This document shows positions 4,697 through 20,005 of a stretch of 52,891 nt of DNA, piece by piece. Source of the DNA: an uncultured Gemmiger sp. (GTDB taxonomy: Bacteria; Bacillota; Clostridia; Oscillospirales; Ruminococcaceae); contig CALWNP010000016.1 in NCBI GenBank assembly GCA_944382835.1, positions 1 to 52,891 of the forward strand, in the 5' to 3' direction. How positions within the stretch are numbered: position 1 is the first letter of the stretch; every line of letters starts with the position of its first letter. The notes beneath the pieces are model-generated. The model was not told the origin of the DNA. It saw only the letters and a list, made by a program, of their open reading frames with translations, and did not search any database. The translations under genes were made by a program, and so were the position numbers.

Positions 4697-4726
4697 GCCG
4701 AACCCCGGGAGAAGGAGCCATTGGAG

Positions 4727-5581
4727 ATGAAAAACGAAGAGATGGCGCTGCTCTTTTCCGAGGCAACGCCCTACATCCAGAAATACCACGGCAAAACCCT
4801 GGTCATCAAATACGGCGGCAACGCCATGGTCAACGACGAGCTCAAGCTGGCCGTCATGAACGACCTGGTCACCCTGACCCTGCTGGGGGTGCGGGTGGTG
4901 CTGGTCCACGGCGGCGGCCCTGCTATCAACCAGATGCTCAAGCGGGTGGGCAAGGAATCCCGCTTCATCGGCGGGCTGCGCTACACCGACAAGGAGACCA
5001 TGGGCATCGTCCAACAGGTGCTGGCCGGCCAGGTCAACAAGGACCTGGTGGCCCTGCTCAAGGGCCGCGGGGTGGGCCTGTGCGGCATGGACGGCCACAC
5101 CATCACCTGCCACCGCAAGACCGATGTGGACCTGGGCTATGTGGGGGTCATTGACCAGGTGGACACCACCCTGGTGGAACACCTGCTCAACGACAGCTTC
5201 ATCCCGGTCATCGCCACGGTGGGGATGGACGAAAACGGCATCCCCTACAACATCAACGCCGACACCGCGGCGGCCGCCATCGCCATCGCCCTCCACGCCG
5301 AAAAGCTGGTCTCGATGACCGATATCGTCGGCCTGCTCTACGACAAGGACGACGAGAGCACCCTGATCCCCGAGGTGGAGGTTTCCGAGATCCCCGGCTA
5401 CAAGGAGGCCGGGGTCATCTCGGGCGGGATGCTGCCCAAGATCGAGGGGATGGCCGACGCCATCTACGAAGGGGTGCACGAGGCGGTCATCATCGACGGC
5501 CGGGTGCCCCACTCGGTGCTGCTGGAGATGTTCTCCGACCGGGGCTCCGGCACCCTGTTCTACCGCCGCGGCAGCCGCTGA
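4727..5581 (+). CDS. argB: Acetylglutamate kinase
   Basis: Phosphorylates N-acetylglutamate with ATP, normally the arginine-feedback step. The product starts MKNEEMALLFSEA and shows the amino acid kinase glycine loops KYGGNAM near residue 30 and VHGGGPAI near residue 63, plus NINADTAAAAIA. An in-frame TTG at 4721 is also possible, but AAGGAG at 4712-4717 is only 3 bases from it and 9 bases from the ATG at 4727, so the ATG is chosen. With 284 residues the length is normal. The N-terminal helix that forms the hexamer in arginine-sensitive kinases seems to be present (EATPYIQKYHGK), which suggests feedback inhibition; that is an inference. Confidence 0.96.
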   Translation: MKNEEMALLFSEATPYIQKYHGKTLVIKYGGNAMVNDELKLAVMNDLVTLTLLGVRVVLVHGGGPAINQMLKRVGKESRFIGGLRYTDKETMGIVQQVLAGQVNKDLVALLKGRGVGLCGMDGHTITCHRKTDVDLGYVGVIDQVDTTLVEHLLNDSFIPVIATVGMDENGIPYNINADTAAAAIAIALHAEKLVSMTDIVGLLYDKDDESTLIPEVEVSEIPGYKEAGVISGGMLPKIEGMADAIYEGVHEAVIIDGRVPHSVLLEMFSDRGSGTLFYRRGSR

Positions 5582-5601
5582 TACAAGGAGGAATCTGACC
5601 C

Positions 5602-6807
5602 ATGAACGCAGAAAAAGTCATCAAGCGGGACAACAAATACGTCATGCACACCTATGCCCGCAGCCCGCTGGTCATCGAGCGGGGCCAGGGCATGTTCGCC
5701 TATGACCCCGAGGGCAACGCCTATCTGGATTTCACCTCCGGCATCGGGGTCAACGCCCTGGGCTTTGCCCACCCCGCCTGGGTGGAAGCCGTCACCCAGC
5801 AGGCCGGCAAACTCCAGCACATCTCCAACCTCTATTACACCGGCCCCTGCGGCAAGCTGGCCAAAAAGATCTGCCAGCGCACCGGCCTGGACAAGGTCTT
5901 TTTCGGCAACTCGGGCGCCGAGGCCAACGAGGGCGCCATCAAGTGCGCCCGCAAATACAGCGTGACCCACTACGGCCCCAACCGCAACAAGGTGGTCAGC
6001 CTGGTCAACTCCTTCCACGGCCGCACCCTGGCCACCCTCACCGCCACCGGCCAGGATGTCTTCCACCATGATTTCGGCCCCTTCCCCGAGAACTTTGCCT
6101 ATCTGCCGGTGAATGACCTGGAGGCGCTGCAGGCTGCGCTGGACCCCACCGTCTGCGCCGTCATGATCGAGCTGGTCCAGGGCGAGGGCGGCGTGGTCGC
6201 CCTGGATGCTGGGTATGTCCATGCCCTCGCCGACCTCTGCGCCAAGCGGGACATCCTGCTGATCGTGGACGAGGTCCAGACCGGGGTGGGCCGCACCGGC
6301 ACCTTCCTGGCCTGTGAGCACTACGGCCTGCACCCCGACATCGTCACCCTGGCCAAGGGTCTGGGCGGCGGTCTGCCCATCGGCGCGGTGGTGGTCAGCG
6401 AAAAGGTGGCCGAGACCATGGGCCCCGGCAGCCACGGCTCCACCTTCGGCGGCAACCCGGTGGCCTGTGCCGGCGGCTGCGCCGTGCTGGACACCATGGA
6501 CCAGGAGTTCATGGAGAACGTCAACGCCTGCGCCGTCGCCCTGCGGGAAGGCCTGGCCAAGCTGCCCCATGTGGTGGAAGTCAGCGGCCTGGGCCTGATG
6601 GTGGGCATCTCCCTGGAACCCGGCATCAACGCCGCCGAGGTCCGCGCCGCCTGCGAGAAGGAGGGCCTGCTGGTCCTCACCGCCAAGACCCGCCTGCGCC
6701 TGCTGCCCCCGCTGATTCTGCGCCGGGGGGATGTGGACGCGGCGCTGGATGTGCTGTATAAGGTGCTGTCCGGCTGGCAGATGACAGACCGGGGGGCACA
6801 GGCATGA
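5602..6807 (+). CDS. argD: Acetylornithine aminotransferase
   Basis: PLP-dependent transfer of the amino group from glutamate to N-acetylglutamate semialdehyde. The 401-residue protein has the class III aminotransferase pattern: GNSGAEANE near residue 100, LIVDEVQTGVGRTG, and the PLP lysine in LAKGLGGG at Lys252, followed by GSHGSTFGGNP. ATG 5602 is preceded by AAGGAGGAA. Its stop overlaps the start of argF by four bases (ATGA), which implies translational coupling. Members of this family may also serve lysine synthesis, but the context points to arginine. Confidence 0.96.
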   Translation: MNAEKVIKRDNKYVMHTYARSPLVIERGQGMFAYDPEGNAYLDFTSGIGVNALGFAHPAWVEAVTQQAGKLQHISNLYYTGPCGKLAKKICQRTGLDKVFFGNSGAEANEGAIKCARKYSVTHYGPNRNKVVSLVNSFHGRTLATLTATGQDVFHHDFGPFPENFAYLPVNDLEALQAALDPTVCAVMIELVQGEGGVVALDAGYVHALADLCAKRDILLIVDEVQTGVGRTGTFLACEHYGLHPDIVTLAKGLGGGLPIGAVVVSEKVAETMGPGSHGSTFGGNPVACAGGCAVLDTMDQEFMENVNACAVALREGLAKLPHVVEVSGLGLMVGISLEPGINAAEVRAACEKEGLLVLTAKTRLRLLPPLILRRGDVDAALDVLYKVLSGWQMTDRGAQA

Positions 6808-7718
6808 AACATCTGTTGAAATTGAGCGGGCTGTCCGCCGAGGAAATCGGCCACATCCTGGATGTGGCTGCCGAGTTCAAGCGGCTGCACCGCCAGGGCA
6901 TTGACCCCCAGGACCTGCGGGGCAAGGCGGTGGCACTGCTCTTCGGCAAGAACTCCACCCGCACCCGCACCAGCCTGGAGGTGGGCATCCACCAGATGGG
7001 CGGGCTGGGCACCTACCTCAACGCCGGCACCGAGCTGCAGATTGCCCGGGGCGAGCCCATCCAGGACACCGCCCGGGTGCTGGGCCGGTACTACGACGCC
7101 ATCGTCTACCGCACCTTCAAGCAGAGTGATCTGGAGGCCCTGGCCCACTGGAGCGGGGTGCCGGTGATCTCGGGCATGACCGACTACGCCCACCCGCTGC
7201 AGGTCCTGGCCGACTTGCTGACGGTGCGGGAGTACAAGGGCCGGCTGGAAGGGCTGCGGGCCGGCTTTGTGGGGGACGGCTACAACATGGCCAACAGCCT
7301 CATTGTGGGCTGCCTGACCATGGGGATGACCCTGGTGGCCGCCTGCCCCAAGGGGTACCGCCCTGCGGCGGACGTGCTCTTCTTTGCCAAGCAGTTCGGG
7401 GATCGGTTCCGTCTGGTCACCGACCCCGACGAGGCCGCCCGGGACGCCGATGTCCTCTTCACCGATGTCTGGACCAGCATGGGGATGGAGCGGGAGACCG
7501 AGCGCCGCCGGCGGGATTTTGCCGGCTACACCCTGGACAGCGCCCGGATGGCCCTGGCCAAACCCGACTGCCTGGTGCAGCACCCGCTGCCCGCCCACCG
7601 GGGGGAGGAGATCGCCGAGGACGTGCTGGAAGCCCACGCCGCCGAGATCTTTGACGAGGCGGAAAACCGCCTCCATGTGGAAAAGGCGGTGCTGGCAATC
7701 CTGCTGGCCGGGCGCTAA
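6804..7718 (+). CDS. argF: Ornithine carbamoyltransferase with an altered HCLP motif
   Basis: Makes citrulline from ornithine and carbamoyl phosphate. The 304-residue protein has the carbamoyl phosphate loop KNSTRTRTSLEVG, the second site HPLQVLADLLT, and the ornithine-binding loop DVWTSMGME, which separates ornithine from aspartate carbamoyltransferases. The usual HCLPAHRGEE motif reads HPLPAHRGEE here: the cysteine codon is replaced by CCG. The usual GDGNNM reads GDGYNM. It is coupled to argD by a four-base overlap and closes the cluster. Whether the substitutions change substrate, for example to an acylated ornithine, cannot be told; the intact SMG loop and gene order favour ornithine. Confidence 0.92.
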   Translation: MKHLLKLSGLSAEEIGHILDVAAEFKRLHRQGIDPQDLRGKAVALLFGKNSTRTRTSLEVGIHQMGGLGTYLNAGTELQIARGEPIQDTARVLGRYYDAIVYRTFKQSDLEALAHWSGVPVISGMTDYAHPLQVLADLLTVREYKGRLEGLRAGFVGDGYNMANSLIVGCLTMGMTLVAACPKGYRPAADVLFFAKQFGDRFRLVTDPDEAARDADVLFTDVWTSMGMERETERRRRDFAGYTLDSARMALAKPDCLVQHPLPAHRGEEIAEDVLEAHAAEIFDEAENRLHVEKAVLAILLAGR

Positions 7719-7754
7719 AATTTGCCCGGTCCTCTGGCGCAGCCCCTTGTCTTG

Positions 7755-7763
7755 TGGTATAAT
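7755..7763 (+). promoter_or_regulatory. Extended -10 promoter before the 172-aa gene
   Basis: TGG followed directly by TATAAT (7758-7763) forms an extended -10. The base positions 17-18 upstream show no convincing -35, which is common when the TGn element is present. It lies about 60 bases before the start at 7824 and after the argF stop, so the next gene is probably transcribed independently of the arginine operon. Confidence 0.6.
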
Positions 7764-7823
7764 GGATTCTGGAGTTCGCCCGGAACCGGGCACCCGATTC
7801 TGTTGCAGGAAGGAGCCCGCCGG

Positions 7824-8342
7824 ATGGGACTGTTCCACAAAATTCAAGCCAAAACCGAAGAAGCCCGGGCGCGGGAAAAGATCCGCCCCCTGCTGGAAAG
7901 CCGGATGATGCGGGATATCCTGCTGGAAATCGGCCAGCGGGGCACCGAGGCGTTGGACCCCCAGTCGGTGCCGATGGCCCAGCGGGAGCGCGCCGCTCAG
8001 CTGGCCCGGGAATCCGGTATCTCGGGGCTCAAACAGTCGGTGGTGGACGAGGTGCGGCTGGACGAGGCCGGCATTGTGCTGGTCTGCGGCGGCAGCGAGG
8101 TGGCCTTCCGCTACGCCGACTACAACTACGAGAACATCCAGGACACCGACTGCCTGCCCGCCGTGGCCCAGTATCTGGTGCAGCATCTGCGGGGGTACTA
8201 CAACATCAGCCGGACCTTCTTCACGGTGCCCAAAAGCCACGGCCGCAAGCCTGCCGAGCGCACCAAGGAGGTCTTCATCCGCCGTCACCACGAGGACAGC
8301 GCCTTTGACCCCGGCCCGGTGCAGCGCCAGCGGCTGTTCTGA
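7824..8342 (+). CDS. Hypothetical protein, 172 aa
   Basis: I do not recognise this protein. The start ATG at 7824 is preceded by AAGGAG at good spacing; the frame is open further upstream but that part crosses the promoter. The product begins MGLFHKIQAKTEEARAREK. It has no signal peptide or membrane segment. The first 70 residues are charged and helical, followed by a mixed region (VDEVRLDEAGIVLVCGGSE) that looks like beta strands, and a basic, His- and Arg-rich C-terminus (VFIRRHHEDSAFDPGP). It is probably a soluble cytoplasmic protein. It stands alone between the arginine operon and a tRNA gene, with its own promoter and a terminator at 8393-8427. Confidence 0.75.
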   Translation: MGLFHKIQAKTEEARAREKIRPLLESRMMRDILLEIGQRGTEALDPQSVPMAQRERAAQLARESGISGLKQSVVDEVRLDEAGIVLVCGGSEVAFRYADYNYENIQDTDCLPAVAQYLVQHLRGYYNISRTFFTVPKSHGRKPAERTKEVFIRRHHEDSAFDPGPVQRQRLF

Positions 8343-8360
8343 ACCCGCCGCGAAAAGTAT

Positions 8361-8389
8361 TTGACGCGGCCCCGAAATTTTGATATAAT
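8361..8389 (+). promoter_or_regulatory. Promoter of tRNA-Ser
   Basis: TTGACG (8361-8366) and TATAAT (8384-8389) are separated by exactly 17 bases, near the sigma-70 consensus. Transcription would begin around 8395-8398, only about 30 bases upstream of the mature tRNA and inside the left arm of the hairpin at 8393-8421. Confidence 0.85.
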
Positions 8390-8392
8390 ATA

Positions 8393-8427
8393 TGCCGCAG
8401 ATGGCCCCGCCACCTGCGGCATTTTTT
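8393..8427 (+). terminator. Intrinsic terminator overlapping the tRNA start site
   Basis: TGCCGCAG (8393-8400) pairs perfectly with CTGCGGCA (8414-8421) and is followed by six T residues. It would stop transcripts coming from the 172-aa gene. Because the tRNA promoter starts transcription inside the left arm, the tRNA transcript itself would lack the full stem. Confidence 0.8.
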
Positions 8428-9740
<1,313 letters not shown>

Positions 9741-9770
9741 CAATTCCTACAATTGAATCAAAAACAGTCA

Positions 9771-9800
9771 ATGCAGAAGAGATTTCTCTTCTGCATTTTT
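9771..9800 (+). terminator. Terminator of the LacI-type gene
   Basis: ATGCAGAAGAG (9771-9781) pairs perfectly with CTCTTCTGCAT (9786-9796) around a four-base loop, followed by TTTT. It separates the regulator from the catabolic operon. Confidence 0.9.
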
Positions 9801-9872
9801 CATAAATCTGAGAGCTTGTTTTAATAAATAATTTACGAACTTTTCCTTTTGAAGGTAAAAATATTAGTAAAA

Positions 9873-9904
9873 TCGTTGACGTAACGAATTTCTGGTGTTA
9901 CCAT
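9873..9904 (+). promoter_or_regulatory. Promoter and candidate operator of the galactoside operon
   Basis: TTGACG (9876-9881) and TACCAT (9899-9904) are 17 bases apart. The inverted repeat TCGTT-GACGT-AACGA (9873-9887) lies over the -35, a good position for a repressor site. A related stretch, GTAAAACCGTTG, occurs again about 55 bases downstream of GTAAAATCGTTG, so a second site is possible. This 250-base gap is AT-rich compared with its surroundings and holds no gene. Confidence 0.6.
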
Positions 9905-9988
9905 TTTTCTTGGAAACGGAAAAATATGCGTAAAACCGTTGCCTATCAACCGTAAAAACACCGCAGAAAAATGGGGGAGAGAAGATCC

Positions 9989-12067
9989 ATGAGCATTGTG
10001 CTTGGGACAAAAAACAAGGTATTCCTGCTCAGCACCGAGAATACCAGCTACGCCTTCGGCATTGACGACCGGGGCCTGGTGCGCCACCTGTACTGGGGCA
10101 AAAAACTGACTTCGGCGGAGGATCTGGAGATGCCGGTCCTCACCGAGGTCTCCACCAACGACCCGGTGTTCGAGATCACCCCCGAGGAGTTCCCGGTGCA
10201 CGGGGGGCTGCGCTACAAGGAGCACTGCCTCAAGGTCACCTTTGCCGACGGCACCCGGGAGCTGGTCTACCAGTACTGCGGTTATGATCTGGAAGAGGGG
10301 GAGGACTGGGAGGAACTGGTGCTCCACCTCAAGGACGAGCACTACGCCCTCTGCATCGACCTCCACTACAAGGTCTACCCCCGGTACGACCTGATGGAGC
10401 GCAGCGTGGTGCTGAAAAATGAGATGGAGGAGCCGCTGCAGATCGAGCAGCTGCACAGCGCCCAGTTCCACATCCCCTACGAAAACCTGAATTTCTCCAA
10501 CGTCCACGGCCACTGGGGGGCCGAGGAACAGCGGTTCACCCAGCGGGTGAGCTACGGCAAAATCCTCATCGAGAACCGGCGGGGCACCTCCAGCCACAAC
10601 CACAACCCCTACTTTGTGCTGGACCGGGACGCCACCGAGACCACCGGCGAGGTCTTCTTCGGGGCGCTGCGGCTGACCGGCAACTTCAGCGGTGTGGTGG
10701 AGCAGACCCCCTACGGCGAGACCCTGGTGCAGATGGGGATCAACCCCCACGACTGCCTGCTCCAGCTGGACCCGGGGCAGAGTTTGAAGGCCCCCGGCGT
10801 CCTCTGCGGCTACTCCGCCACCGGCTTTGAGACCATGTCTCACAACCTCCACCGCTTTGCCCTGGACCATCTGATGCGCAAGGGGCTGCGGCCGGTGCTC
10901 TACAACTCCTGGGAGGCCACCGAGTTCCATGTGAACTGCCAGGACCAGATCAAGCTGGCCCAGAAGGCCAGCGAGCTGGGCGCCGAGCTCTTTGTGCTGG
11001 ACGACGGCTGGTTCGGGGAGCGGCACAGCATCCAGAACGGCCTGGGGGACTGGTACGTCAACGAGGGCAAGTTCCCCAACGGGCTGGAGGAGCTCATCAC
11101 CGCGGTGAAGGACCTGGGAATGATGTTCGGCCTCTGGGTGGAGCCCGAGATGGTCAACCCCAAAGCCCAGCTCTACCAGGATCACCCCGACTGGATCTAC
11201 CACTACGAGACCCGGGTCAGCGATACCTCCCGGGTGCAGTATGTCCTCAACGTCACCAAGCCGGAGGTGCGGGAATTCATCTACAACATGCTGGACAACC
11301 TGCTCACCCGGTATGACATCGACTACATCAAGTGGGACGCCAACCGCCCCATCTCTCAGACCGGCCCCCAGCGGGACATCTGGTACCAGCACATCCAGGT
11401 GATCTACGGCATCGTCACCGAGCTGAAAAAGAAGCATCCCAAGGTCCTCTTTGAGGCCTGCGCCTCGGGCGGCGGCCGGATTGACTACGGCATCCTGGGC
11501 ATCTTCGACGACTTCTGGACCAGCGACAACACCGACGCCTACGACCGGCTCTACATCCAGGATGCCTATTCCCGGATCTATCCCATCAAGGCCATGCGGG
11601 CCTGGGTTACCGACTGCCCCAACTTCCTCTCGGGCCGGGTGATTCCCCTGACCTTCCGCTTCCACAGCGCCATGATGGGCAGCCTGGGCATCGGCTGCAA
11701 CATCCTCAAGTTCACCCCCGAGGAGGTAGAGCTGTCCCAGAAGATGATCCGCCAGTACAAGGAAATCCGGCCCATCATCCAGGAAGGAACCTTCTACCGG
11801 CTGGACAACCCCAGCGCCGACCGGTATTTCCTCTACGAATATCTCAACGGGGACAAGGGGGTGCTCTTCGCCTTCCTGCCCCAGAGCAAGGTGGGCCACC
11901 GGGGCACCACCATCCGGCTGCGGGGGCTGGAGGAGAACGAACAGTACACCCTCCACATCGCCCAGGGGGACATCACCAAGAGCGGAAGCTATCTCATGGG
12001 TCACGGATTGCCCCTGCGTCTGAGCGGCGATTACGCCAGCGCGCTGGTGCAGTTTGAAAAAAAATGA
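9989..12067 (+). CDS. Alpha-galactosidase, glycoside hydrolase family 36
   Basis: Removes terminal alpha-galactose from melibiose, raffinose and similar sugars. The 692-residue protein has the family order: N-terminal beta-sandwich, then a TIM barrel beginning near WEATEFHVN and LFVLDDGWFG, the nucleophile in YIKWDANR (Asp450), CASGGGRIDYG, and the acid/base in WTSDNTDA (Asp513). There is no signal peptide, so it acts on imported sugar. An upstream in-frame ATG at 9971 exists, but GGGGGAGAG lies between the two, so ATG 9989 is preferred. It is the first gene of the operon with the transporter and beta-galactosidase. Confidence 0.95.
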   Translation: MSIVLGTKNKVFLLSTENTSYAFGIDDRGLVRHLYWGKKLTSAEDLEMPVLTEVSTNDPVFEITPEEFPVHGGLRYKEHCLKVTFADGTRELVYQYCGYDLEEGEDWEELVLHLKDEHYALCIDLHYKVYPRYDLMERSVVLKNEMEEPLQIEQLHSAQFHIPYENLNFSNVHGHWGAEEQRFTQRVSYGKILIENRRGTSSHNHNPYFVLDRDATETTGEVFFGALRLTGNFSGVVEQTPYGETLVQMGINPHDCLLQLDPGQSLKAPGVLCGYSATGFETMSHNLHRFALDHLMRKGLRPVLYNSWEATEFHVNCQDQIKLAQKASELGAELFVLDDGWFGERHSIQNGLGDWYVNEGKFPNGLEELITAVKDLGMMFGLWVEPEMVNPKAQLYQDHPDWIYHYETRVSDTSRVQYVLNVTKPEVREFIYNMLDNLLTRYDIDYIKWDANRPISQTGPQRDIWYQHIQVIYGIVTELKKKHPKVLFEACASGGGRIDYGILGIFDDFWTSDNTDAYDRLYIQDAYSRIYPIKAMRAWVTDCPNFLSGRVIPLTFRFHSAMMGSLGIGCNILKFTPEEVELSQKMIRQYKEIRPIIQEGTFYRLDNPSADRYFLYEYLNGDKGVLFAFLPQSKVGHRGTTIRLRGLEENEQYTLHIAQGDITKSGSYLMGHGLPLRLSGDYASALVQFEKK

Positions 12068-12110
12068 ATCGTCAGTTGGTTTGTAAGAATGGATGGAGGT
12101 ATCACGAATC

Positions 12111-13481
12111 ATGCAATTATCAATGGGAAGGAAACTCTGTTTCGGCGTAGGCGGCCTGGGCAAGGACCTGTGTTACGCCATGATCAGCACCTATCTGACC
12201 ATCTACCTCACCGACACCATCGGCCTGGCGCCGCTGTTTGTCGGCAACCTGTTCCTGGTGGCCCGTGTCTGGGACGCGGTGAATGACCCCATGATGGGCT
12301 TCATCGTGGACAACACCCGCACCCGCTGGGGCAAATTCCGTCCCTGGATTCTCATCGGCACCCTTCTCAATGCGGTGATTCTGGTGCTGTTGTTCCGGGG
12401 CCCGAATCTTGCCGGCTTTGCCCAGTACGCCTACTACTCGGTCATGTACATCCTCTGGGGCATGACCTACACCGTTCTGGACATCCCGTACTGGTCCATG
12501 CTGCCCTCCATGTTCTCCACCAAGGAGGAGCGGGACTCCATGTCGGTCATTCCCCGCATCTTCGCCAGCTCTGCCTGGCTGCTGGTGGGCGCCTTCGGTC
12601 TGGCCATGATCAACTTCCTGGGCAAGGGCGATGAGGCCAAGGGCTATGCCGGCACCTCTGTGGTGGTGGCCGTGATCTTTGTGGTCACCCTGCTGGTCAC
12701 CGTCCTCTTCTCCCGCGACCGCAGCAGCATGGAAGCTGCCACCAGCAAAAAGACCCAGCGCACCTCTCTGAAATACGCCATCCACGTCATCACCGGCAAC
12801 GATCAGCTCAAGGTCTACATCGGCGTGGTGCTGGCCTACAACCTGGTTGTCCAGCTGGCCGGCGGTATGGCCCTGTATTACTTCAAGTACGTCACCATGG
12901 ACGACGGCCTGTTCCCCTACTTCACCACCGCGGCTTCGCTGGCCGAGATGATCGCGCTGTTCTTCTTCCCCCTCTTCTCCCGCTTCATGTCCAAGAAGGC
13001 GGTCTTTGCGGTGGCCAGCTTCACCCCGGCCGTGGGTCTGCTGGGCCTGCTGGCGGTGGGTGTGGTGGCCCCCGAGAACATCCCCCTCACCATCGTCTGC
13101 GGCCTGTTCTATAAGTTCGGCTCCGGCCTGACCCTGGGCGCCACCACCGTCATGCTGGCCGACGTCATCGACTACGGCGAGGTCAAGCTGGGCACCCGCA
13201 ACGAGAGCATTGTGGCCTCCTTCCAGACCCTGCTGGTCAAGACCGCTTCCGCCGTGGCCGGCTGGCTCATCGGCGTGGGCCTGACCATCTTCGGCTATGT
13301 GGAGAATGTGCCCCAGAGCGCCGGCACCATCATGGGCCTGCGGGTCCTGATGGGTGTGATTCCTTCGGTCATCACCGTGCTGGCCTTTGTGATCTATGTG
13401 GGCGGCTACAAGCTGGACGGCAGCGTCCTGGAGGACGTGGCCAAGCAGCTGAAGGAAAAACGCACTGCCGAAGTACAGTAA
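12111..13481 (+). CDS. Galactoside:cation symporter, GPH (MelB-like) family
   Basis: A membrane carrier of 456 residues that probably imports a galactoside with Na+ or H+. The N-terminal part GLGKDLCYAMISTYLTIYLTD and the loop RVWDAVNDPMMGFIVDNTRT match the MelB/GPH pattern, including acidic residues in helix 2 used for cation binding in MelB. About twelve hydrophobic segments are visible. ATG 12111 has GGAGGT at 12095-12100; an earlier ATG at 12093 would overlap that site. It lies 43 bases after the alpha-galactosidase and 27 bases before the beta-galactosidase. The exact sugar is not shown by the sequence. Confidence 0.92.
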   Translation: MQLSMGRKLCFGVGGLGKDLCYAMISTYLTIYLTDTIGLAPLFVGNLFLVARVWDAVNDPMMGFIVDNTRTRWGKFRPWILIGTLLNAVILVLLFRGPNLAGFAQYAYYSVMYILWGMTYTVLDIPYWSMLPSMFSTKEERDSMSVIPRIFASSAWLLVGAFGLAMINFLGKGDEAKGYAGTSVVVAVIFVVTLLVTVLFSRDRSSMEAATSKKTQRTSLKYAIHVITGNDQLKVYIGVVLAYNLVVQLAGGMALYYFKYVTMDDGLFPYFTTAASLAEMIALFFFPLFSRFMSKKAVFAVASFTPAVGLLGLLAVGVVAPENIPLTIVCGLFYKFGSGLTLGATTVMLADVIDYGEVKLGTRNESIVASFQTLLVKTASAVAGWLIGVGLTIFGYVENVPQSAGTIMGLRVLMGVIPSVITVLAFVIYVGGYKLDGSVLEDVAKQLKEKRTAEVQ

Positions 13482-13508
13482 ATCAACAACAAAACAAGAG
13501 GAACCGTT

Positions 13509-15461
13509 ATGTATCTTGGCGTAGACTATTATCCCGAACAGTGGGAACCCGGCATGCTGGAGCAGGACCTGGACACCATCCTGGACCTGGGCTGCAATGC
13601 CATCCGCATCGGCGAATTTGGCTGGCACATCATGGAAAAGACCGAGGGTCAGTTCGACTTCTCCCTCTTTGACCATGTGATCCAGCGGGCGAAGGCCCGG
13701 GGCCTGCAGGTGGTCATGGGCACCCCCACCGCCACCATCCCGGCCTGGCTGGCCAAAAAGCACCCCGAGATCCTCTCCCGGTTTGAGGACGGCAGCCCCC
13801 GCTCCTTCGGCGGGCGGCATGTCTACTGCTTCAACAGCAAGGCGATGTACGCCTATTCCGAGCGGATCATCCGGGCCCAGGCCCAGCACTACAAGGACGA
13901 GCCTGCCATCGTGGCCTGGCAGATTGACAACGAGCTGGGCCATGAGGACAGCGACATCTGCTACTGCCCCCAGTGCCGGGCAGCCTTCCAGGACTATCTG
14001 CGCCGGAAATTCAACGGGGACATCGAGGCGCTCAACCGCACCTACGGCACCACCTTCTGGAGCCAGGAGTACAACGACTTTGACGAGATCCCCCTGCCCG
14101 CCCGGACCATCACCACCCACAACCCGGCCCTGCGGCTGGACTGGGAGCGGTTCCGCAGCGAGAGCATCCGGAAATTCGCCCAGTTCCAGTGCGACCTGCT
14201 GCGGGAGATTCTGCCCGGGGCGGTGATCCTGCACGACTTCCCCGGCGGCGGGCTGTCCAAACATGTGGACTACTCCCGGGTGGCCGAACCCCTGACGGTG
14301 GTGGCCTACAACAACTACCCGGTCTGGGGTGGTCAGCGGGAGCCCCTGGCCCCCAACGAGATCGCCTTCGGGCTGGACTACATCCGGGGCCTGCGCCGGC
14401 AGAACTTCTGGATCACCGAGGCCATCATGGGGGCCCAGGGCCACGATGTCACCGGCTTCTCCCCCCGGCCCAACCAGGCCAAGATGTGGGCCTGCCAGGG
14501 CATGGCCCGGGGCTGTGAATCCCTCTTCTTCTTCCGCTACCGCGGTGCCACCAAGGGCGCCGAGCAGTTCTGCTACGGCATCCTGGACGCCGACAACGTC
14601 AAGCGGCGGAAATACTACGAGGTGCAGAGCTTCTTCCGGGAGATCCGCCCCTACGCCCCCCAGCTGGCCAGCCCCATCACCAGCCAGGTGGCCATCCTCT
14701 ACGACTATGACTCGCTGGCGGCCTTCCGCATCCAGCGCCAGAGCCTGACCCTGGACTGCGAAGGGGAGATGAAGAAGTACCACAAATTCTTCTACGACCG
14801 CAACATTCCGGTGGATGTGATCCCCGCCCGGGCCGATTTCTCCGGCTACAAGGTGGTGATCCTGCCCCAGATGATCGTCACCGATCCCCGGCTGCAGCAG
14901 CGGCTGAAGGACTTTGTGCAGCAGGGCGGCATCGCGCTGCTCACCTACCGGGACTTTGTCAAGGATCTGGACAACAACCTGGTGCTGGGCAAACAGCTGC
15001 CCCTGGACTTTGACGACTTCGCAGGGGTCTGTGTAGCCGAGACCGAGAGCCTGCAGGAGGGCCAGGACTTCCCCCTGGGTGGGGAAGGGGACTGGTCCGG
15101 CGCCCAGGGCCAGGGCGGCATCTTCCGGGATATGCTGCTCTGCTCGGATGCCCAGGTGCTGCTGCGCTACCGGGACCCCTTCTACGGGGAGTACGCAGCC
15201 CTCACCCGCAAGGCCCAGCAGAAGGGCTGGGTCTACTACCTGGGCTGCGGGGTGGACCAGCCCCTGCTGGCCCGTCTGCTGGAGGAGATCTGCACCCGGC
15301 AGGGCATTGCCGGGGAGAAGACCGCCCCCGGGGTGGAGGTGGTGTACCGCGGCAGCGGCAAGGACCGCATCCGGATGGTCATGAACCACAACGCCGGTCC
15401 GGCGGACTACCGCGGCCGCACCCTGGAGCCCTTCCAGTGCACCATCGAGCCGGCAGAATAA
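13509..15461 (+). CDS. Beta-galactosidase, glycoside hydrolase family 42
   Basis: Hydrolyses terminal beta-galactosides inside the cell. The 650-residue protein starts MYLGVDYYPEQW, the family 42 start. The acid/base is Glu142 in QIDNELGHE and the nucleophile is Glu304 in FWITEAIMG. The cluster CYCPQC near residue 155 belongs to the cysteine zinc site known in this family. Domain order is barrel, a glutamine-amidotransferase-like trimerisation domain (VILPQMIVTDPRL), then a small C-terminal beta domain. It closes the operon, so alpha- and beta-linked galactosides can both be split after uptake by the same carrier. Confidence 0.95.
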   Translation: MYLGVDYYPEQWEPGMLEQDLDTILDLGCNAIRIGEFGWHIMEKTEGQFDFSLFDHVIQRAKARGLQVVMGTPTATIPAWLAKKHPEILSRFEDGSPRSFGGRHVYCFNSKAMYAYSERIIRAQAQHYKDEPAIVAWQIDNELGHEDSDICYCPQCRAAFQDYLRRKFNGDIEALNRTYGTTFWSQEYNDFDEIPLPARTITTHNPALRLDWERFRSESIRKFAQFQCDLLREILPGAVILHDFPGGGLSKHVDYSRVAEPLTVVAYNNYPVWGGQREPLAPNEIAFGLDYIRGLRRQNFWITEAIMGAQGHDVTGFSPRPNQAKMWACQGMARGCESLFFFRYRGATKGAEQFCYGILDADNVKRRKYYEVQSFFREIRPYAPQLASPITSQVAILYDYDSLAAFRIQRQSLTLDCEGEMKKYHKFFYDRNIPVDVIPARADFSGYKVVILPQMIVTDPRLQQRLKDFVQQGGIALLTYRDFVKDLDNNLVLGKQLPLDFDDFAGVCVAETESLQEGQDFPLGGEGDWSGAQGQGGIFRDMLLCSDAQVLLRYRDPFYGEYAALTRKAQQKGWVYYLGCGVDQPLLARLLEEICTRQGIAGEKTAPGVEVVYRGSGKDRIRMVMNHNAGPADYRGRTLEPFQCTIEPAE

Positions 15462-15487
15462 GGCTCCCGCACAATTTCAGCAAAAAC

Positions 15488-15532
15488 AAAGAGGAGACAG
15501 AACTTCCCGCAAGGGGGTCTGTCTCCTCTTTT
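15488..15532. terminator. Bidirectional terminator between convergent genes
   Basis: AAAGAGGAGACAGA (15488-15501) pairs perfectly with TCTGTCTCCTCTTT (15518-15531). T residues follow on the plus strand, and A residues before the stem provide a U tract on the minus strand. It ends both the galactoside operon and the minus-strand sigma-like operon. Confidence 0.9.
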
Positions 15533-15545
15533 GCTGTTGTGGGGG

Positions 15546-16610
15546 TTATTCCTGTTCCAGCATCTGGCGGCGCAGGGTTTGCTGCAGCTTCTGGAACCGG
15601 CGGTGGGCCATCGAGACGGCGGGAGCGCCCACCTGTTTGTAGGCCGCGATGGAGCTGTCCCGCAGCGGCAGCCGCAGCTTGCCCGCAATGAGGTTGCGGA
15701 TGCTGTCCGGCTGCGGGGGCGGACAGTAGACAAAGCAGAGGTAGGGCAGGGCAAAGACCGCCCGGAAGAGCGCCGCCTCGTGGCGCAGCAGCAGCCGGGC
15801 GTAGCCCACATCGTCGGTGAGCTCCTCCTCCTTCAGGGGGCGGAGCAGGTCGTTGGTCAGAAACAGCCGGGCGTACTCCTTTTGCTCGGTCTCGCAAAGC
15901 CGGTCCAGCAGATCGCTCAGCTGCTGGGCCAGCTCCACCGCCCGGACAAACCCCTCCGACTGGGGATCGGGGGCGGGCAGTTCCTCCTCCTCCCCCTCCT
16001 CGGCGGGGCGGGGGGCGATGGTGTTGGCCATCCGCACCACCGCCAGCAGCTGGCGCAGCGCCGATTCGGTGACCCCCAGCTCGGCGGCCAGCGAGGCGCA
16101 GAGCCCGGCGGGCAGGTTCTCGGCGGCATGGGGGGAATGGCGGCGCAGCAGAAAGGCGTTGAGCTTTTTCAGCAGCTCCATATCCCGCTTTTTCAGCGGG
16201 CCAAAGGCCTTCTGCTCCTGCACCGCCACGCTCTGCCGGGCCTCGCGGACCAGCTTCTGGCGGTAGAGCAGCTGAAAGTAGGAGAGAAAGGGCACCCCCT
16301 TCTCCCCGTCATACCGGGCCATGGCCTCGCAGATGGCGTTCATGAAGGCCAGGTTGTCATACTGGCGGCCGCGGCTGGCCGGGTCGTACTGGGCCCGGCG
16401 CAGGCTCTCCTCGTTTTTCAGCAGGGCGCTGTCGGGGTTCCGGGTGTCCCGCTCCAGCTGCTTGTCAAAGGCAAAATACCGCAGCACCAGCCGCATCAGT
16501 TCCAGCCGCAGCCGCTGGTCCTGCCGCTGCTGGGGCGGCAGGGCCAGCAGGGGATGGCCGTTGATCTGCTGCTGCAAGGCGGCGCGCTGCCGGGAAATCT
16601 CCTGTTCCAT
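15546..16610 (-). CDS. Sigma-70-like protein (putative RNA polymerase sigma factor)
   Basis: A 354-residue protein whose middle resembles sigma region 2: NLAFMNAICEAMARYDGEKG followed by VPFLSYFQLLYRQKLV (about residues 86-121), the pattern of core-binding and -10 recognition helices. Residues 172-195 (SLAAELGVTESALRQLLA) look like a region 3 or HTH helix pair, and the C-terminus (about 319-350, IAAYKQVGAPAVSMAHRRF) could be a region 4 helix-turn-helix. A Glu-rich linker is at 204-211. It is larger than ECF factors and has unusual inserts. The start ATG has GGAGG just upstream, within the 12-base gap after the TM1812-like gene, so the two are cotranscribed. The sigma role is inferred from motif resemblance; it could be a degenerate or specialised DNA-binding protein. 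Confidence 0.65.
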   Translation of the reverse strand: MEQEISRQRAALQQQINGHPLLALPPQQRQDQRLRLELMRLVLRYFAFDKQLERDTRNPDSALLKNEESLRRAQYDPASRGRQYDNLAFMNAICEAMARYDGEKGVPFLSYFQLLYRQKLVREARQSVAVQEQKAFGPLKKRDMELLKKLNAFLLRRHSPHAAENLPAGLCASLAAELGVTESALRQLLAVVRMANTIAPRPAEEGEEEELPAPDPQSEGFVRAVELAQQLSDLLDRLCETEQKEYARLFLTNDLLRPLKEEELTDDVGYARLLLRHEAALFRAVFALPYLCFVYCPPPQPDSIRNLIAGKLRLPLRDSSIAAYKQVGAPAVSMAHRRFQKLQQTLRRQMLEQE

Positions 16611-16622
16611 GGCCGTCCTCCG

Positions 16623-17234
16623 TCACAGCTCCAGCATCTGCCGGATCATCTTGTCCTTGTCGCTGCCCTCCATCCCCGCCACCAGGTCCACCAGGGCGTT
16701 GAGGGTGAAGAGGGCGGTGACATCATAGAGGTTGGCGGTGCGGTTCTGGCCCTGGCTGCGCAGGATCTCCCGGTAGTAGATCCCCCCGATCTGGGTGTTG
16801 CGGCAGATCTTGTCGGCGTAGGACAGGGCGCTGAAGAGCACCACCGGGAAGGTCTTGGTGCCAAAGGTCATGCAGGCGTAGTAGCAGGCGTCGTCCTCCA
16901 TGCAGTCGATGAGCCGGGCAAACAGGTCCAGCAGCAGGTCCTTCTGCTGGCTCTCGGGCACAACCAGCTCCCGCAGCGTCCAGTTGCGGCGGGGCAGGGC
17001 CTCCAGCTCCCGGCGCAAAATCTCCATGTTCTGGTTGCGGGGGCTGTTCTGCTGGCGCACCGCCACCACAATCCCCTCGTCGCCGGGGGCCAGGGTGGCG
17101 TCAATCACCGGCAGGATGGGGTAGGCGCTTTGGGTCATGGCGGTGTTCAGGGAGAAGTTCACCGGGTGGAGGGGCTGGGGTTCCAGGAGGAAGTTGCTCT
17201 CCAGCGGAACCGCGGTAAAATAGATGCGTTTCAT
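16623..17234 (-). CDS. TM1812/CARF-like protein (CRISPR-associated family, orphan)
   Basis: A 203-residue soluble protein with the layout of the TM1812 (Csx/CARF-like) family: first strand KRIYFTAVPLES, a second strand GDEGIVVAVRQQN near residue 51, a helix ahead of YYACMTFGTKTFPVVLFSA (118-136) which corresponds to the DxTxGTK ligand loop, then GGIYYREI (150-157) and LYDVTALFTLNALVDLV (169-185). The aspartate of the DxTxG motif is replaced by Cys121, while Gly125 and Lys127 remain. In this family the fold binds cyclic oligonucleotides, but no ligand can be claimed here. ATG 17234 has AGGAGGC upstream; the frame extends further but without a start site. It precedes the sigma-like gene by 12 bases. 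No cas genes or CRISPR repeats are present. Confidence 0.7.
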   Translation of the reverse strand: MKRIYFTAVPLESNFLLEPQPLHPVNFSLNTAMTQSAYPILPVIDATLAPGDEGIVVAVRQQNSPRNQNMEILRRELEALPRRNWTLRELVVPESQQKDLLLDLFARLIDCMEDDACYYACMTFGTKTFPVVLFSALSYADKICRNTQIGGIYYREILRSQGQNRTANLYDVTALFTLNALVDLVAGMEGSDKDKMIRQMLEL

Positions 17235-17291
17235 GGGTGTGCCTCCTTTGCAGGCGGTGGCCGCGCCGGGTGGGGCGGCCTTGTTGTGTTG

Positions 17292-17321
17292 AGTATAGCA
17301 TGAAGGCCGCACCGGGCGCAA
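17292..17321 (-). promoter_or_regulatory. Promoter of the TM1812-like/sigma-like operon
   Basis: On the minus strand TTGCGC (17321-17316) and TATACT (17297-17292) are 18 bases apart, upstream of the start at 17234. The -10 is strong, the -35 moderate. Confidence 0.55.
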
Positions 17322-17384
17322 GCGGCGGGGCCTTTCGGAAGGGAAGGTAGCGCCCCCGCCGGCGAAAGTTCACCCCCCGGACGC

Positions 17385-17428
17385 AAAAACGCCCCGCAGA
17401 GGGCCACCGGGCCGCCCTGCGGGGCGTT
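17385..17428 (-). terminator. Terminator of the sulfotransferase operon
   Basis: AACGCCCCGCAG (17388-17399) pairs perfectly with CTGCGGGGCGTT (17417-17428). On the minus strand the stem is followed by TTTTT (17389-17385). Confidence 0.88.
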
Positions 17429-17441
17429 GCAGCCATCCGGC

Positions 17442-19205
17442 TCAGGCGAACCAGATGCTCATGTCATATTTGAAGGTGCGGTAGTTCTGCATGGTGCACT
17501 CGTAGGCGTACTGGCGGATCAGGGTGCCGGTGGCATCGTACTCCCCGAAGACCATCGAGATGCCGCTGTTCACCACCCAGTTGCTGCCGCCGGGGCAGAG
17601 AGACCCGTTGGAGACGATGCTGGAGTAGGGCACATCAAAGCTCTCGGCCAACGAGAAGGTGCGGTTGTTCTCGTCGATGCGGTAGACATAGACCTGGCTG
17701 TGGTCCTCCTCCGAGCCGTAGAGGTCGGTGCCCACGCTGTCGGCCACCTCCATGGAGAAATCGTCCCGGCTGTTCAGCGACCAGTAGTTGTTGTTGAAGA
17801 AGGAGAGGTAGTAGACCCCCTCTTCCTCCCCGTCCCGCAGAAACTCCACACAGTGCTGGCCGTACTGGGGCACAAAGTCCCCCTCGGCGGTCAGGCAGAG
17901 GTCGGCGTAGGGGGTGTCGGCCCAGAACCGGTCATCCCCGGCCAGCCAGTCCACAGTGGGCTGGCCGTGCAGGTCGGCCACCTTGATGATGGTGGAGGTC
18001 TCCCGGGAGGAGACGATCAGGCTGTCCTCCTCGGGCAGGTACTGCAGGCTGTTCAGGTGAATCCAGTCCCACTCCCCGGCCTGCCAGAAGAAGTCGTCGG
18101 TGGCGCCCACCGGGCGGGTCATCTCAAAGTAGGGGGCCATCAGCTGGCTGAAATCCAGCAGCTGGGTCACGGCGCCGCTTTCCAGGTCGATGGAGAGCAG
18201 CCGGTCCTCCACCGTCTGGCTCCCCACCTCCTCGGCCAGGGCCAGCACCTCCCCGTCGGCGCCGAAGCCGATGTCGTGGTGGAGATCGTAGCCGCCCAGG
18301 TCATAGACCTGGGTCACCTCGCCCAGGCCGTTGATCCGGGCCAGCTTGGAGGAGGAGGCACAGGTGATGATCTCGTCCCCGTCAAAGAGGATGCGGTCCA
18401 GCCCGAAGCCCTCCAGCACCATCTCGTACCGCAGCACCCCGGCGTTGTCGTAGAAAAAGCCGTAGCCCAGGGTGCCGTTGACCCGCATCATGGCAAAAAG
18501 CCCCTCGTCCTGGGGCTGGTCCGAGCTGCCGTCGGTGACCTCCAGCCGGGTGGCGTAGCCCGAACTGGTCTCGGGCATCTCCACCGTGAAGCTGACCACC
18601 TGGCGGGTGTTGCCCCAGCTGCCGGTCATGGTCATGGTTACCCGGTTGGTCTCGCCGGGCACCAGCCCGATGAGCTGGAACTCATGGATGCGGGTGAAGT
18701 CCTGCCCCGAGCTGTCCGCCGCGTCGGCGGTAAAGTCGGGGATGTCGGAGTGCGGCACCTGGACGGTGTAGCTGACCCGGGTGGGCTGGTCGGTGGTGAA
18801 GTAGAGGTAGAGCCCGTTGCTGCCGGTGCCAAAGGGGTTCAGCACCGCCAGCGGGGTGGTGGCGGTCCACTGCATCCCCTCGGTCTTCAGGCTTTCCAGG
18901 GTGTTGGCCAGCCGCTGCTGCACCTGGGTGTCATAGAAGGTGAAGCCCTCCTCCTCCAGGTCCTGGGGCACCAGCTGCACCGCCCGCAGCCCCTCCCCCA
19001 GGGGGGCCTCGTTCACGTCCACCTGCCACTCGTCCATCTCTTCCAACAGGCTGCCGGTCTCAAAGGACCAGTCGGTGCGCACCACATGCTCCTGGGCGGT
19101 GAAAGCCTTGGACACCAGCATGACGATGGCCAGCGCCAGCACCACCAGCAGGGCCAGACCCACCACAATCCCCGCAATCAGCCGTTTGCGATGTTTCAGC
19201 TTCAT
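17442..19205 (-). CDS. Membrane-anchored arylsulfate sulfotransferase (ASST family)
   Basis: Predicted to move a sulfate group from one phenolic ester to another phenol without PAPS. The 587-residue protein has one N-terminal membrane segment (about residues 9-32) and an extracellular part: a beta-rich N-terminal domain, then a propeller with DLHHDIGFG (His309/310), WDWIHLNSLQ (His383), SSRETS (Arg401) and YGQHCVEF (His451). In E. coli ASST the active site consists of three histidines and one arginine, with the sulfo-intermediate on the last histidine; the 18-residue spacing from His383 to Arg401 is the same as in that enzyme. It lies 23 bases downstream of a TauE/SafE-type exporter gene and is probably cotranscribed with it. 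Substrate unknown. Confidence 0.85.
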   Translation of the reverse strand: MKLKHRKRLIAGIVVGLALLVVLALAIVMLVSKAFTAQEHVVRTDWSFETGSLLEEMDEWQVDVNEAPLGEGLRAVQLVPQDLEEEGFTFYDTQVQQRLANTLESLKTEGMQWTATTPLAVLNPFGTGSNGLYLYFTTDQPTRVSYTVQVPHSDIPDFTADAADSSGQDFTRIHEFQLIGLVPGETNRVTMTMTGSWGNTRQVVSFTVEMPETSSGYATRLEVTDGSSDQPQDEGLFAMMRVNGTLGYGFFYDNAGVLRYEMVLEGFGLDRILFDGDEIITCASSSKLARINGLGEVTQVYDLGGYDLHHDIGFGADGEVLALAEEVGSQTVEDRLLSIDLESGAVTQLLDFSQLMAPYFEMTRPVGATDDFFWQAGEWDWIHLNSLQYLPEEDSLIVSSRETSTIIKVADLHGQPTVDWLAGDDRFWADTPYADLCLTAEGDFVPQYGQHCVEFLRDGEEEGVYYLSFFNNNYWSLNSRDDFSMEVADSVGTDLYGSEEDHSQVYVYRIDENNRTFSLAESFDVPYSSIVSNGSLCPGGSNWVVNSGISMVFGEYDATGTLIRQYAYECTMQNYRTFKYDMSIWFA

Positions 19206-19228
19206 TTTTCTTTCCCTCTTCCTTGATG

Positions 19229-20005
19229 TTACAGCCAGGAGATCACCACCAGCACGATGCCCAGCCCGGTGAGGATGATGCCGGTGAGCCGGTTGAGCAG
19301 CTTGGCGTCCGCCCCGGTGGCGATCCGGGCGGCGATCTGGGCCCAGACCAGGGTGAAGATCACGCAGAGGACCAGCAGATCCATCCGGGGCGGATGCCCC
19401 AGGGCAAAGTGGCTCACCGCCCCGGTCAGGGCCGAGAAGGTCATCACAAAGACGCTGGTGCCCACCGCGGTTTTCAGCTCATAGCCCAGCACGGCGGTCA
19501 GCACCAGCAGCATCATCATGCCGCCGCCGGCCCCGAAAAAGCCGCAGATCAGCCCGATGATGGCGCCGCCCGCCGCCCCCTTGGCGATCCGCACCGCCCG
19601 GCTGCCCCCCTGCAGGATCTGCCGGGTGGAGGTCACCGGGAAGAAGAGGAACCGCAGCCCCAGGATCAGGGTCATGGTCACCGAAAAGCCCCCCAGGGTG
19701 GTGTTGGGCACAAAGGTGGACAGCCAGCTGCCCACCAGGGTCATCACCAGCACCCCGCACATCATCACAAAGCCGTTGCGGATGTCGATGGAGCCGTTCT
19801 TGGCGTAGGTGCGGGCGCTGGCGGCGCTGGCCAGCACGTCGCTGGCCAGGGCGATGCCAATGGCGTCGTAGGCGGGCAGGCCCAGAAAGGTGACCAGCAT
19901 GGGGGTGATGACGGTGGCGGCGCTCATCCCGGCAAAACCGGTGCCCAGCCCGGCCCCGGCCCCGGCCAGAAAACAGATCAGGATTTCATACAACAGTGAA
20001 GCCAA
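19229..20005 (-). CDS. TauE/SafE (TSUP) family membrane exporter
   Basis: A 258-residue protein with about eight hydrophobic helices. The first repeat, LAGAGAGLGTGFAGMSAATVITPM, and the second, GGAIIGLICGFFGAGGGMMM, are the paired glycine-rich repeats of this family, many members of which move sulfite, sulfonates or related anions. No ATG fits the conserved N-terminus; a TTG at 20005 has AGGAGG at nine bases, so translation probably starts there (MASLLYEILICF). The frame extends to 20071 but crosses the promoter. It precedes the arylsulfate sulfotransferase gene, which supports a role in moving a sulfur compound. Its promoter carries the same box as the two-component and ABC promoters. Confidence 0.82.
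   Translation of the reverse strand: MASLLYEILICFLAGAGAGLGTGFAGMSAATVITPMLVTFLGLPAYDAIGIALASDVLASAASARTYAKNGSIDIRNGFVMMCGVLVMTLVGSWLSTFVPNTTLGGFSVTMTLILGLRFLFFPVTSTRQILQGGSRAVRIAKGAAGGAIIGLICGFFGAGGGMMMLLVLTAVLGYELKTAVGTSVFVMTFSALTGAVSHFALGHPPRMDLLVLCVIFTLVWAQIAARIATGADAKLLNRLTGIILTGLGIVLVVISWL

What the first reader, a model, noticed from the sequence alone, without database searches (positions are those of the whole stretch)
15546..17234. Orphan TM1812/CARF-like protein paired with a sigma-70-like protein, no CRISPR in sight
Seen: a 203-residue protein with TM1812-type layout (TFGTKTFPVVLFSA, GGIYYREI, LYDVTALF) sits 12 bases upstream of a protein with sigma region 2-like sequence, under one promoter. 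The DxTxG aspartate is changed to Cys. Known: CARF/TM1812 proteins sense cyclic oligonucleotides made by type III CRISPR, and one type III system (CalpL/CalpT/CalpS) ends in release of a sigma factor. Inference: here a nucleotide- or other ligand-sensing protein may control a dedicated sigma factor outside CRISPR, an arrangement I do not know to be described.
Basis: partly seen in the sequence, partly recalled or inferred. Interest (0 to 1): 0.85.

Follow-up and report, generated by a model that had tools for sequence, protein, structure and literature searches.

The report
CARF sensor paired with sigma-like protein
A gut bacterium carries a two-gene unit, a sensor of the kind that reads CRISPR alarm molecules next to a protein related to the factors that direct transcription, and the pair recurs both inside and outside CRISPR loci of related bacteria.

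Summary
The upstream gene is a full-length standalone CARF protein (PADLOC CARF2, E 6e-58; best model pLDDT 88; all 14 PDB matches at E<=0.001 are CARF proteins). The downstream gene is a divergent sigma-70 relative: a profile of 16 family members matches the host's own sigma factors at E 2e-8 (95%), against 0.0-0.3% for 22 controls. The pair stays together: 17 of 18 related CARF loci have the partner directly downstream (-4 to 22 bp), and leave-one-out profiles find it in 16 of 16. It is a real, old two-gene module.

"Outside CRISPR" is half right. In 4 of 16 carrier genomes the pair lies in a type III-D CRISPR locus and a fifth has Cas10d on another contig; three other loci have a TerY-P-like triad nearby and a fourth part of one. 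No Cas10 was found in the window's genome or the five other carrier genomes of its clade, with the models applied. Most likely the CARF protein binds a nucleotide messenger and controls the sigma-like partner: like CalpL/T/S or Craspase/CASP-sigma in outcome, but without a protease. Ligand, contact and sigma activity are untested. No description turned up in the papers searched; the 2020 CARF classification was not held.

The parts
16623..17234 (-). Standalone CARF protein, 203 aa (P0001)
   Evidence: PDLC01822 E 5.7e-58; best AlphaFold model pLDDT 88, pTM 0.86; 14 of 14 PDB matches at E<=0.001 are CARF proteins
16854..16874 (-). CARF motif C-M-T-F-G-T-K (residues 121-127); [DC]xT[FY]GxK in relatives
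   Evidence: motif present in 18 of 18 related CARFs, first position Cys in 9 and Asp in 9
15546..16610 (-). Sigma-70-like partner, 354 aa (P0002)
   Evidence: hhalign of 16 partners against three own sigma factors: prob 95.3, E 2.1e-8; CARF, reversed and 20 column-shuffled controls 0.0-0.3; leave-one-out HMM E 2.4e-75
16230..16361 (-). Region-2-like stretch of the partner (residues 84-127)
   Evidence: SigI and sigma70 model matches lie or start here; D85, D101, G105, F108, F112 invariant in 7 rows; coordinates
16044..16196 (-). Region-3-like stretch (residues 139-189)
   Evidence: aligned with RpoD region 3; some relatives match Pfam Sigma70_r3 below threshold
15573..15665 (-). C-terminal helix-turn-helix-like stretch, resembling region 4.2 (residues 316-346)
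   Evidence: by inspection of the alignments; one relative, L016, matches Sigma70_r4 at E 0.1 only; model confidence low to moderate here
17292..17321 (-). Possible housekeeping promoter: TTGCGC, 18 nt, TATACT with TG before it
   Evidence: read by eye; a TATACT or TATAAT box upstream in 5 of 7 loci of the close clade; the consensus scan found none
15480..15531 (-). Intrinsic-terminator-like hairpin (14-bp stem, T-rich tail) after the partner
   Evidence: read by eye from the downstream sequence; the scan lists a shorter hairpin at 15511-15530 on the other strand only

Best explanation
The two genes form a conserved, presumably co-transcribed module in which a standalone CARF protein senses a nucleotide second messenger and directly controls a dedicated sigma-70-derived partner, switching a defence transcription programme. 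SHOWN by computation: CARF fold, sigma homology, conserved gene order, occurrence in type III-D CRISPR loci in part of the family. INFERRED: the messenger is a cyclic oligoadenylate where Cas10 is present (the Cas10d frames keep a GDD or GDE motif) and an unidentified signal where it is not; the CARF dimer holds the partner and releases or arms it on ligand binding; the partner binds RNA polymerase core. No protease is needed in this scheme, unlike CalpL/T/S and Craspase.
For: CARF identity. Sigma homology: 21 of the 23 NCBIfam models hit at E<=0.1 by members of A3 are sigma models, best 1.1e-5, though no model is hit by more than 3 of the 11 members; hhalign against own sigma factors 93.5%, E 2.3e-7 for A3 and 95.3%, E 2.1e-8 for 16 partners, with 22 controls at 0.0-0.3%; the A3 profile matches frames in 310 of 394 genomes at E<=1e-3, in the own genome the RpoD frame at 4.3e-9; the 50 of 228 PDB rows printed for the partner model are by title RNA polymerase transcription complexes or sigma models. 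Linkage: 17 of 18 CARF loci; genus survey with each protein alone: the same 3 of 35 genomes, adjacent in 4 of 4; partner ranked first in 16 of 16 leave-one-out searches, gap -4 to 22 bp; a held-out scaffold gave CARF 1.2e-65 and partner 1.1e-38, 12 bp apart. CRISPR link: Cas10d plus Cas5/Cas7 III-D, Cas1 or arrays in L071, L072, L078, L079; Cas10d in 5 of 16 carrier genomes. Distances in the two protein trees correlate, rho 0.67, 0 of 5000 permutations.
Against: In 10 of 16 carrier genomes, the own one included, no Cas10 was found, so the messenger there is unknown (three of the ten were searched with two of the three models only). The partner passes no curated sigma cut-off; 4 of 5 partners outside A3 (L048, L051, L026, L027) hit no sigma model at E<=0.1. 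The profile of the close clade alone matches sigma factors less well (60.6%, E 8.4e-5). The partner model is poor (pLDDT 60) and no PDB match reaches E 0.001. Contact of the proteins was not tested. One CARF relative (G036) lacks the partner. The two trees place G237, G697 and G775 differently, at low support.
Confidence: 0.55

Rival explanations
1. The partner is a sigma-derived effector that binds RNA polymerase and blocks transcription (an abortive-infection effector) instead of an active sigma factor that redirects it; the CARF protein keeps it inert until the signal appears.
For: The partner is very divergent, with extra sequence before its C-terminal HTH-like stretch (by eye), and passes no sigma cut-off. 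Many type III effectors damage or stall the cell (abstract and passages of PMC11229360).
Against: Region 2-like, region 3-like and HTH-like stretches appear in sigma order in several members, more than core binding alone would need.
Confidence: 0.25
2. In the window's own clade the pair is a leftover of a lost type III locus and no longer senses anything.
For: No Cas10d in any of the six carrier genomes of the clade; their hits to the Cas10a model are about 23-25 bits, in the own genome an RNase Y-like frame by eye; the nearest other lineage, G697, has a III-D locus; the DxTxG Asp is Cys in 6 of the 7 pairs of the clade.
Against: All 7 pairs of the clade are open frames with short spacing. Third positions differ more than second positions in 8 of 8 comparisons, clearly for CARF, weakly for the more distant partners. 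The Cys variant also occurs in Cas10d-bearing genomes G237, G268, G249.
Confidence: 0.12
3. Chance neighbours: an orphan CARF gene that happens to precede an unrelated gene.
For: Single-sequence database hits for the partner are weak.
Against: 17 of 18 loci keep the order; genus survey 4 of 4 adjacent.
Confidence: 0.02

Closest known systems
CalpL/CalpT/CalpS (type III CRISPR Lon protease, anti-sigma, sigma)
   Same: Cyclic-oligoadenylate sensing that ends in a sigma factor (passage of PMC11229360)
   Different: There a SAVED-Lon protease cuts an anti-sigma; here a standalone CARF is alone with the sigma-like gene, with no protease or anti-sigma gene recognised in the window's operon
Craspase: Cas7-11, Csx29, Csx30, CASP-sigma (type III-E)
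   Same: CRISPR-linked control of a sigma factor (passages of PMC10028731)
   Different: CASP-sigma resembles ECF sigma factors, is held by Csx30 and freed by an RNA-activated protease; here sensing would be by CARF, and the partner's hits are mostly to SigI and RpoD-type models
CARF transcription regulators: Csa3 (CARF-wHTH) and RtcR (CARF-AAA-HTH, sigma54 coactivator)
   Same: CARF controlling transcription (Csa3 structures among the matches; Csa3 abstract; RtcR in a passage of PMC11090510)
   Different: There the DNA-binding part is fused to the CARF and is not a sigma-70 relative
CARF2 standalone group of PADLOC (PDLC01820-01823)
   Same: The CARF gene is a clear member
   Different: No PADLOC model fits the partner: two models hit one member each at E 6e-4 and 4e-3
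TerY-P triad (vWA, PP2C, kinase)
   Same: Such genes follow the pair in L076 and L109, lie about 2.4 kb off in L073, and partly (vWA, PP2C) near L048
   Different: The passages read on TerY-P (PMC11090510) mention no CARF-sigma pair; no such genes among the four neighbours tested in the window

Membership tests
CARF superfamily | CARF sequence profile over the whole protein | tested here: met
   PDLC01822 E 5.7e-58, residues 1-202
CARF superfamily | Rossmann-like CARF fold | tested here: met
   Best model pLDDT 88, the other four 55-70; all 14 PDB matches at E<=0.001 are CARF proteins; phosphofructokinases appear further down at E 0.006
CARF superfamily | Binds cyclic oligoadenylate | not testable with these tools
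   Needs a ligand-binding assay
Sigma-70 family | Homology over regions 2 and 3 | tested here: met
   hhalign E 2.1e-8, 22 controls at 0.0-0.3%; own RpoD frame hit by the family profile at 4.3e-9
Sigma-70 family | Passes a curated sigma-70 model cut-off | tested here: not met
   15.3 bits against 42.9 for TIGR02937; none of the relatives whose scores were shown does either
Sigma-70 family | Region 4 helix-turn-helix | tested here: inconclusive
   C-terminal HTH-like stretch by eye in the window and several relatives, not obvious in G268, G249, G775; one sub-threshold Pfam hit; low to moderate model confidence
Sigma-70 family | Binds core polymerase and starts transcription | not testable with these tools
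   Needs biochemistry
CalpL/T/S | SAVED-Lon protease and anti-sigma gene beside the sigma gene | tested here: not met
   The four nearest window genes are beta-galactosidase, MFS transporter, arylsulfotransferase and TauE; the rest of the genome was not searched for these genes
Craspase/CASP-sigma | Cas7-11, Csx29, Csx30 in the locus | not tested
   No search was made for them
Type III CRISPR accessory module | Encoded in a locus with Cas10 | tested here: inconclusive
   Met in 4 of 16 carrier genomes, Cas10d on another contig in a fifth, a Cmr2-like Cas10 elsewhere in a sixth (G308); none found in the window's genome, 91% complete

The most novel reading that the evidence does not exclude
A CARF protein works as a ligand-controlled anti-sigma (or co-sigma) switch without proteolysis, and in Cas10-free gut bacteria the same switch has been rewired from CRISPR to another nucleotide or to TerY-P phosphorylation: a general second-messenger-controlled sigma system of which the CRISPR versions are only one branch.
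Probability: 0.3. Interest if true: 0.88.

Novelty: new variant of a known kind. Interest (0 to 1): 0.7.

Why it matters
The two CRISPR pathways I know to end in a sigma factor both use a protease. A two-gene CARF plus sigma-like module would be a shorter path from an alarm nucleotide to altered transcription, with natural examples in type III-D, TerY-P-like and orphan settings to compare. It would give a group of standalone CARF2 proteins a target, and it asks which signal a CARF reads in cells without Cas10.

Tried and rejected
Chance adjacency: rejected. Cas10 in the own genome: PF22335 and PDLC02057 gave none; the PDLC01739 hit (24.6 bits, G000:C68) lies in an RNase Y-like frame, named by eye from L055; the similar weak hits in other genomes were not looked at one by one. 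The weak PF22335 hit in G036 is a GGDEF protein by eye. A CBASS-type cyclase (PF18144) as messenger source: 1 of 16 genomes, G308. A viral-contig scan confirmed no relative among 73 stretches, plasmid records gave none, phage records one unverified fecal scaffold. Structure of the partner: low confidence, weak use only. Loss of function from the D-to-C change: not a usable criterion. A Fisher test of co-occurrence in 394 genomes (p 6.7e-16) carries little weight: the 8 partner genomes are rows of the profile, chosen for lying next to a CARF; what it adds is that no further genome had a strong match. L039 was dropped because its CARF frame runs to the contig end; the other places (frames of 411 aa or more) were not counted as standalone, and most were not translated. 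Rows L007 and L008 of A3 start one codon inside the frame. In one search two of five shuffles printed the same line, perhaps a stale file, so I repeated the controls with 20 shuffles.

Full report
WHAT IS IN THE WINDOW. On the minus strand, 17234-16623 encodes a 203-residue protein and 16610-15546 a 354-residue protein, 12 bp apart. By eye a hairpin with a T-rich tail follows the second gene (15531-15480) and a TGcTATACT box lies upstream of the first; a TATACT or TATAAT box is found upstream in 5 of 7 loci of the close clade, while the consensus scan found none in the window. The four neighbours tested are a family-42 beta-galactosidase, an MFS sugar transporter, an arylsulfotransferase and a TauE exporter: nothing of defence. 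The genomes of the same genus that carry the pair are Gemmiger MAGs by record title; the window's own name is not shown.

FIRST GENE: A CARF PROTEIN. PADLOC CARF2--CARF PDLC01822 matches residues 1-202 at E 5.7e-58; NCBIfam TM1812 matches at 8.3e-7, below its cut-off; Pfam gave only a sub-threshold hit to an unrelated model. AlphaFold with 7 sequences gave pLDDT 88.0 and pTM 0.86 for the best model; the other four had 55-70. All 14 PDB matches at E<=0.001 are CARF proteins (Csx1-Crn2, Csx1, Csm6, Csa3). The motif [DC]xT[FY]GxK is present in 18 of 18 related CARFs; its first position is Cys in 9, the window included, and Asp in 9.

SECOND GENE: A SIGMA-70 RELATIVE. Alone it scores weakly (SigI 8.8e-4, sigma70 superfamily 0.012) and passes no cut-off. 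As a family it is clearer. Of 23 NCBIfam models hit by members of A3 at E<=0.1, 21 are sigma models, best 1.1e-5, but no single model is hit by more than 3 of the 11 members. hhalign against three sigma factors of the own genome gave 60.6%, E 8.4e-5 for the close clade (A5), 93.5%, E 2.3e-7 for A3 and 95.3%, E 2.1e-8 for all 16 partners; the CARF alignment, the reversed partner alignment and 20 column shuffles gave 0.0-0.3%. The A3 profile matches frames in 310 of 394 genomes at E<=1e-3; in the own genome the second hit, 4.3e-9, is the RpoD frame (RpoD named by eye); the other genomes' frames were not translated. Sub-threshold Pfam hits in relatives fall on region 2 (L012), region 3 (L011, L015, L016, L109) and region 4 (L016). 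Against: 4 of 5 partners outside A3 hit no sigma model in NCBIfam at E<=0.1 (L048, L051, L026, L027), the partner model is poor (pLDDT 60), and no PDB match reaches E 0.001; the 50 of 228 rows printed are, by title, RNA polymerase transcription complexes or sigma models, best E 0.024, and I did not check chain by chain that the match is the sigma subunit.

THE PAIR STAYS TOGETHER. In the genus, each gene searched alone occurs in the same 3 of 35 genomes, 4 copies each, adjacent in 4 of 4. PDLC01822 found 9 of 394 genomes of the order and 19 of 391 of the class, where two new places were complete standalone CARFs. A scan of genome contigs gave six loci, three of them new, in Pygmaiobacter, Fournierella and Ruthenibacterium MAGs. 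With a phage-labelled fecal scaffold (21% identity to the window's CARF) this makes 18 standalone CARF loci; 17 have the partner directly downstream, and G036 does not. For 16 pairs a profile built from the other 15 ranked the partner first among all frames of 80 aa or more in its region, E 2.4e-75 to 2.6e-4 (these are the weakest and, for the window's own pair, one of the stronger values; the strongest is 9.2e-108), and the gap was -4 to 22 bp. The scaffold, in no profile, gave CARF 1.2e-65 and partner 1.1e-38, 12 bp apart. In the order, strong partner matches (E 1e-20 or better) occur in 8 of 394 genomes, all 8 rows of the profile and all with the CARF; no further genome has one. Tree distances of the two proteins correlate (rho 0.67, 0 of 5000 permutations reach it), though the trees place G237, G697 and G775 differently at low support, and shared host history contributes. 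Third codon positions differ more than second in 8 of 8 comparisons, clearly for CARF and weakly for the more distant partners. The survey was by similarity to the window's own CARF group; the neighbouring groups PDLC01820, 01821 and 01823 were not surveyed.

WHERE THE PAIR LIVES. (i) Type III-D CRISPR: L072 (G249; Cas10d and a Cas5 III-D-type gene about 3-5 kb off, a complete Cas10a further on), L071 (G268; Cas10d about 7 kb off, array of 18-19 repeats), L078 (G697; Cas1 overlaps the CARF start, Cas10d follows the partner), L079 (G775; array of 7 repeats upstream, Cas10d follows the partner). Cas10d was found in 5 of 16 carrier genomes; in the fifth, G237, it is on another contig and a CARF-HEPN gene precedes the pair by 4 bp. 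G308 has a Cmr2-like Cas10 elsewhere. All five Cas10d frames keep a GDD or GDE motif, read by eye. (ii) TerY-P-like genes: vWA, PP2C and kinase follow the pair in L076 and L109 and lie about 2.4 kb off in L073; near L048 there are vWA and PP2C genes, on the other strand, and the large third gene had no Pfam hit. (iii) Without recognised defence neighbours: the window and, as far as read, most of its clade. No Cas10 was found in 10 of 16 carrier genomes; seven of these were searched with PF22335, PDLC02057 and PDLC01739, three (those of L048, L050, L051) with the last two only. The own genome is 91% complete, so absence is likely, not proven. SMODS cyclase: 1 of 16.

HOW IT MOST LIKELY WORKS. 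CARF domains are receptors of cyclic oligoadenylates (established for the superfamily). A CARF kept next to a sigma relative, in part within Cas10 loci, points to messenger-controlled transcription. I infer that the CARF dimer binds the partner and that ligand frees or arms it. The main rival is a sigma-derived polymerase blocker. In hosts without Cas10 the signal is open.

COMPARISON WITH THE KNOWN. CalpL/T/S (passage in PMC11229360) and Craspase with CASP-sigma (passages in PMC10028731) couple CRISPR to a sigma factor through a protease; Csa3 and RtcR fuse CARF to other regulators. The 2025 CRISPR classification (PMC12669027; term searches and passages only) has no occurrence of 'sigma' in its main text; its supplements were not seen. 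Searches combining CARF or type III CRISPR with sigma terms showed no paper on this pair by title and start of abstract; one search listed 15 of 34. The 2020 CARF classification is not held, so a mention there cannot be excluded. No PADLOC model fits the partner.

VERDICT. Real, conserved, not found described in what could be searched; a new variant of CRISPR-linked sigma control, with an orphan branch that needs another signal.

Noticed in passing
L077 (G300) 11496-14384: An AAA plus peptidase M41 (FtsH-like) protein of 962 aa starts about 430 bp after the CARF/sigma-like pair, so a protease may take part in this branch.
   Followed up: partly
L109 (MT835511.1) 3933-10402: Unverified phage-labelled fecal scaffold with a WYL regulator, then CARF, sigma-like gene, vWA, PP2C and kinase on one strand; could be a mobile element or a bacterial fragment.
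   Followed up: partly
L072 (G249) 10192-19527: A Cas10a gene with RAMP-like genes (read by eye) lies beside a second cassette with Cas10d and a Cas5 III-D-type gene; the pair is on the side of the latter.
   Followed up: no
L074 (G036) 9516-10115: The only one of the 18 standalone CARF loci without a sigma-like neighbour.
   Followed up: partly
window 48541-48898: Array of 18-bp repeats (9 copies listed in register); read in one frame it would give TPESAA-like repeats. Whether it is coding was not checked.
   Followed up: no
control genomes: The Cas10 palm model PF22335 rings over its cut-off in the E. coli control genome, so that model alone may not be specific for Cas10.
   Followed up: no
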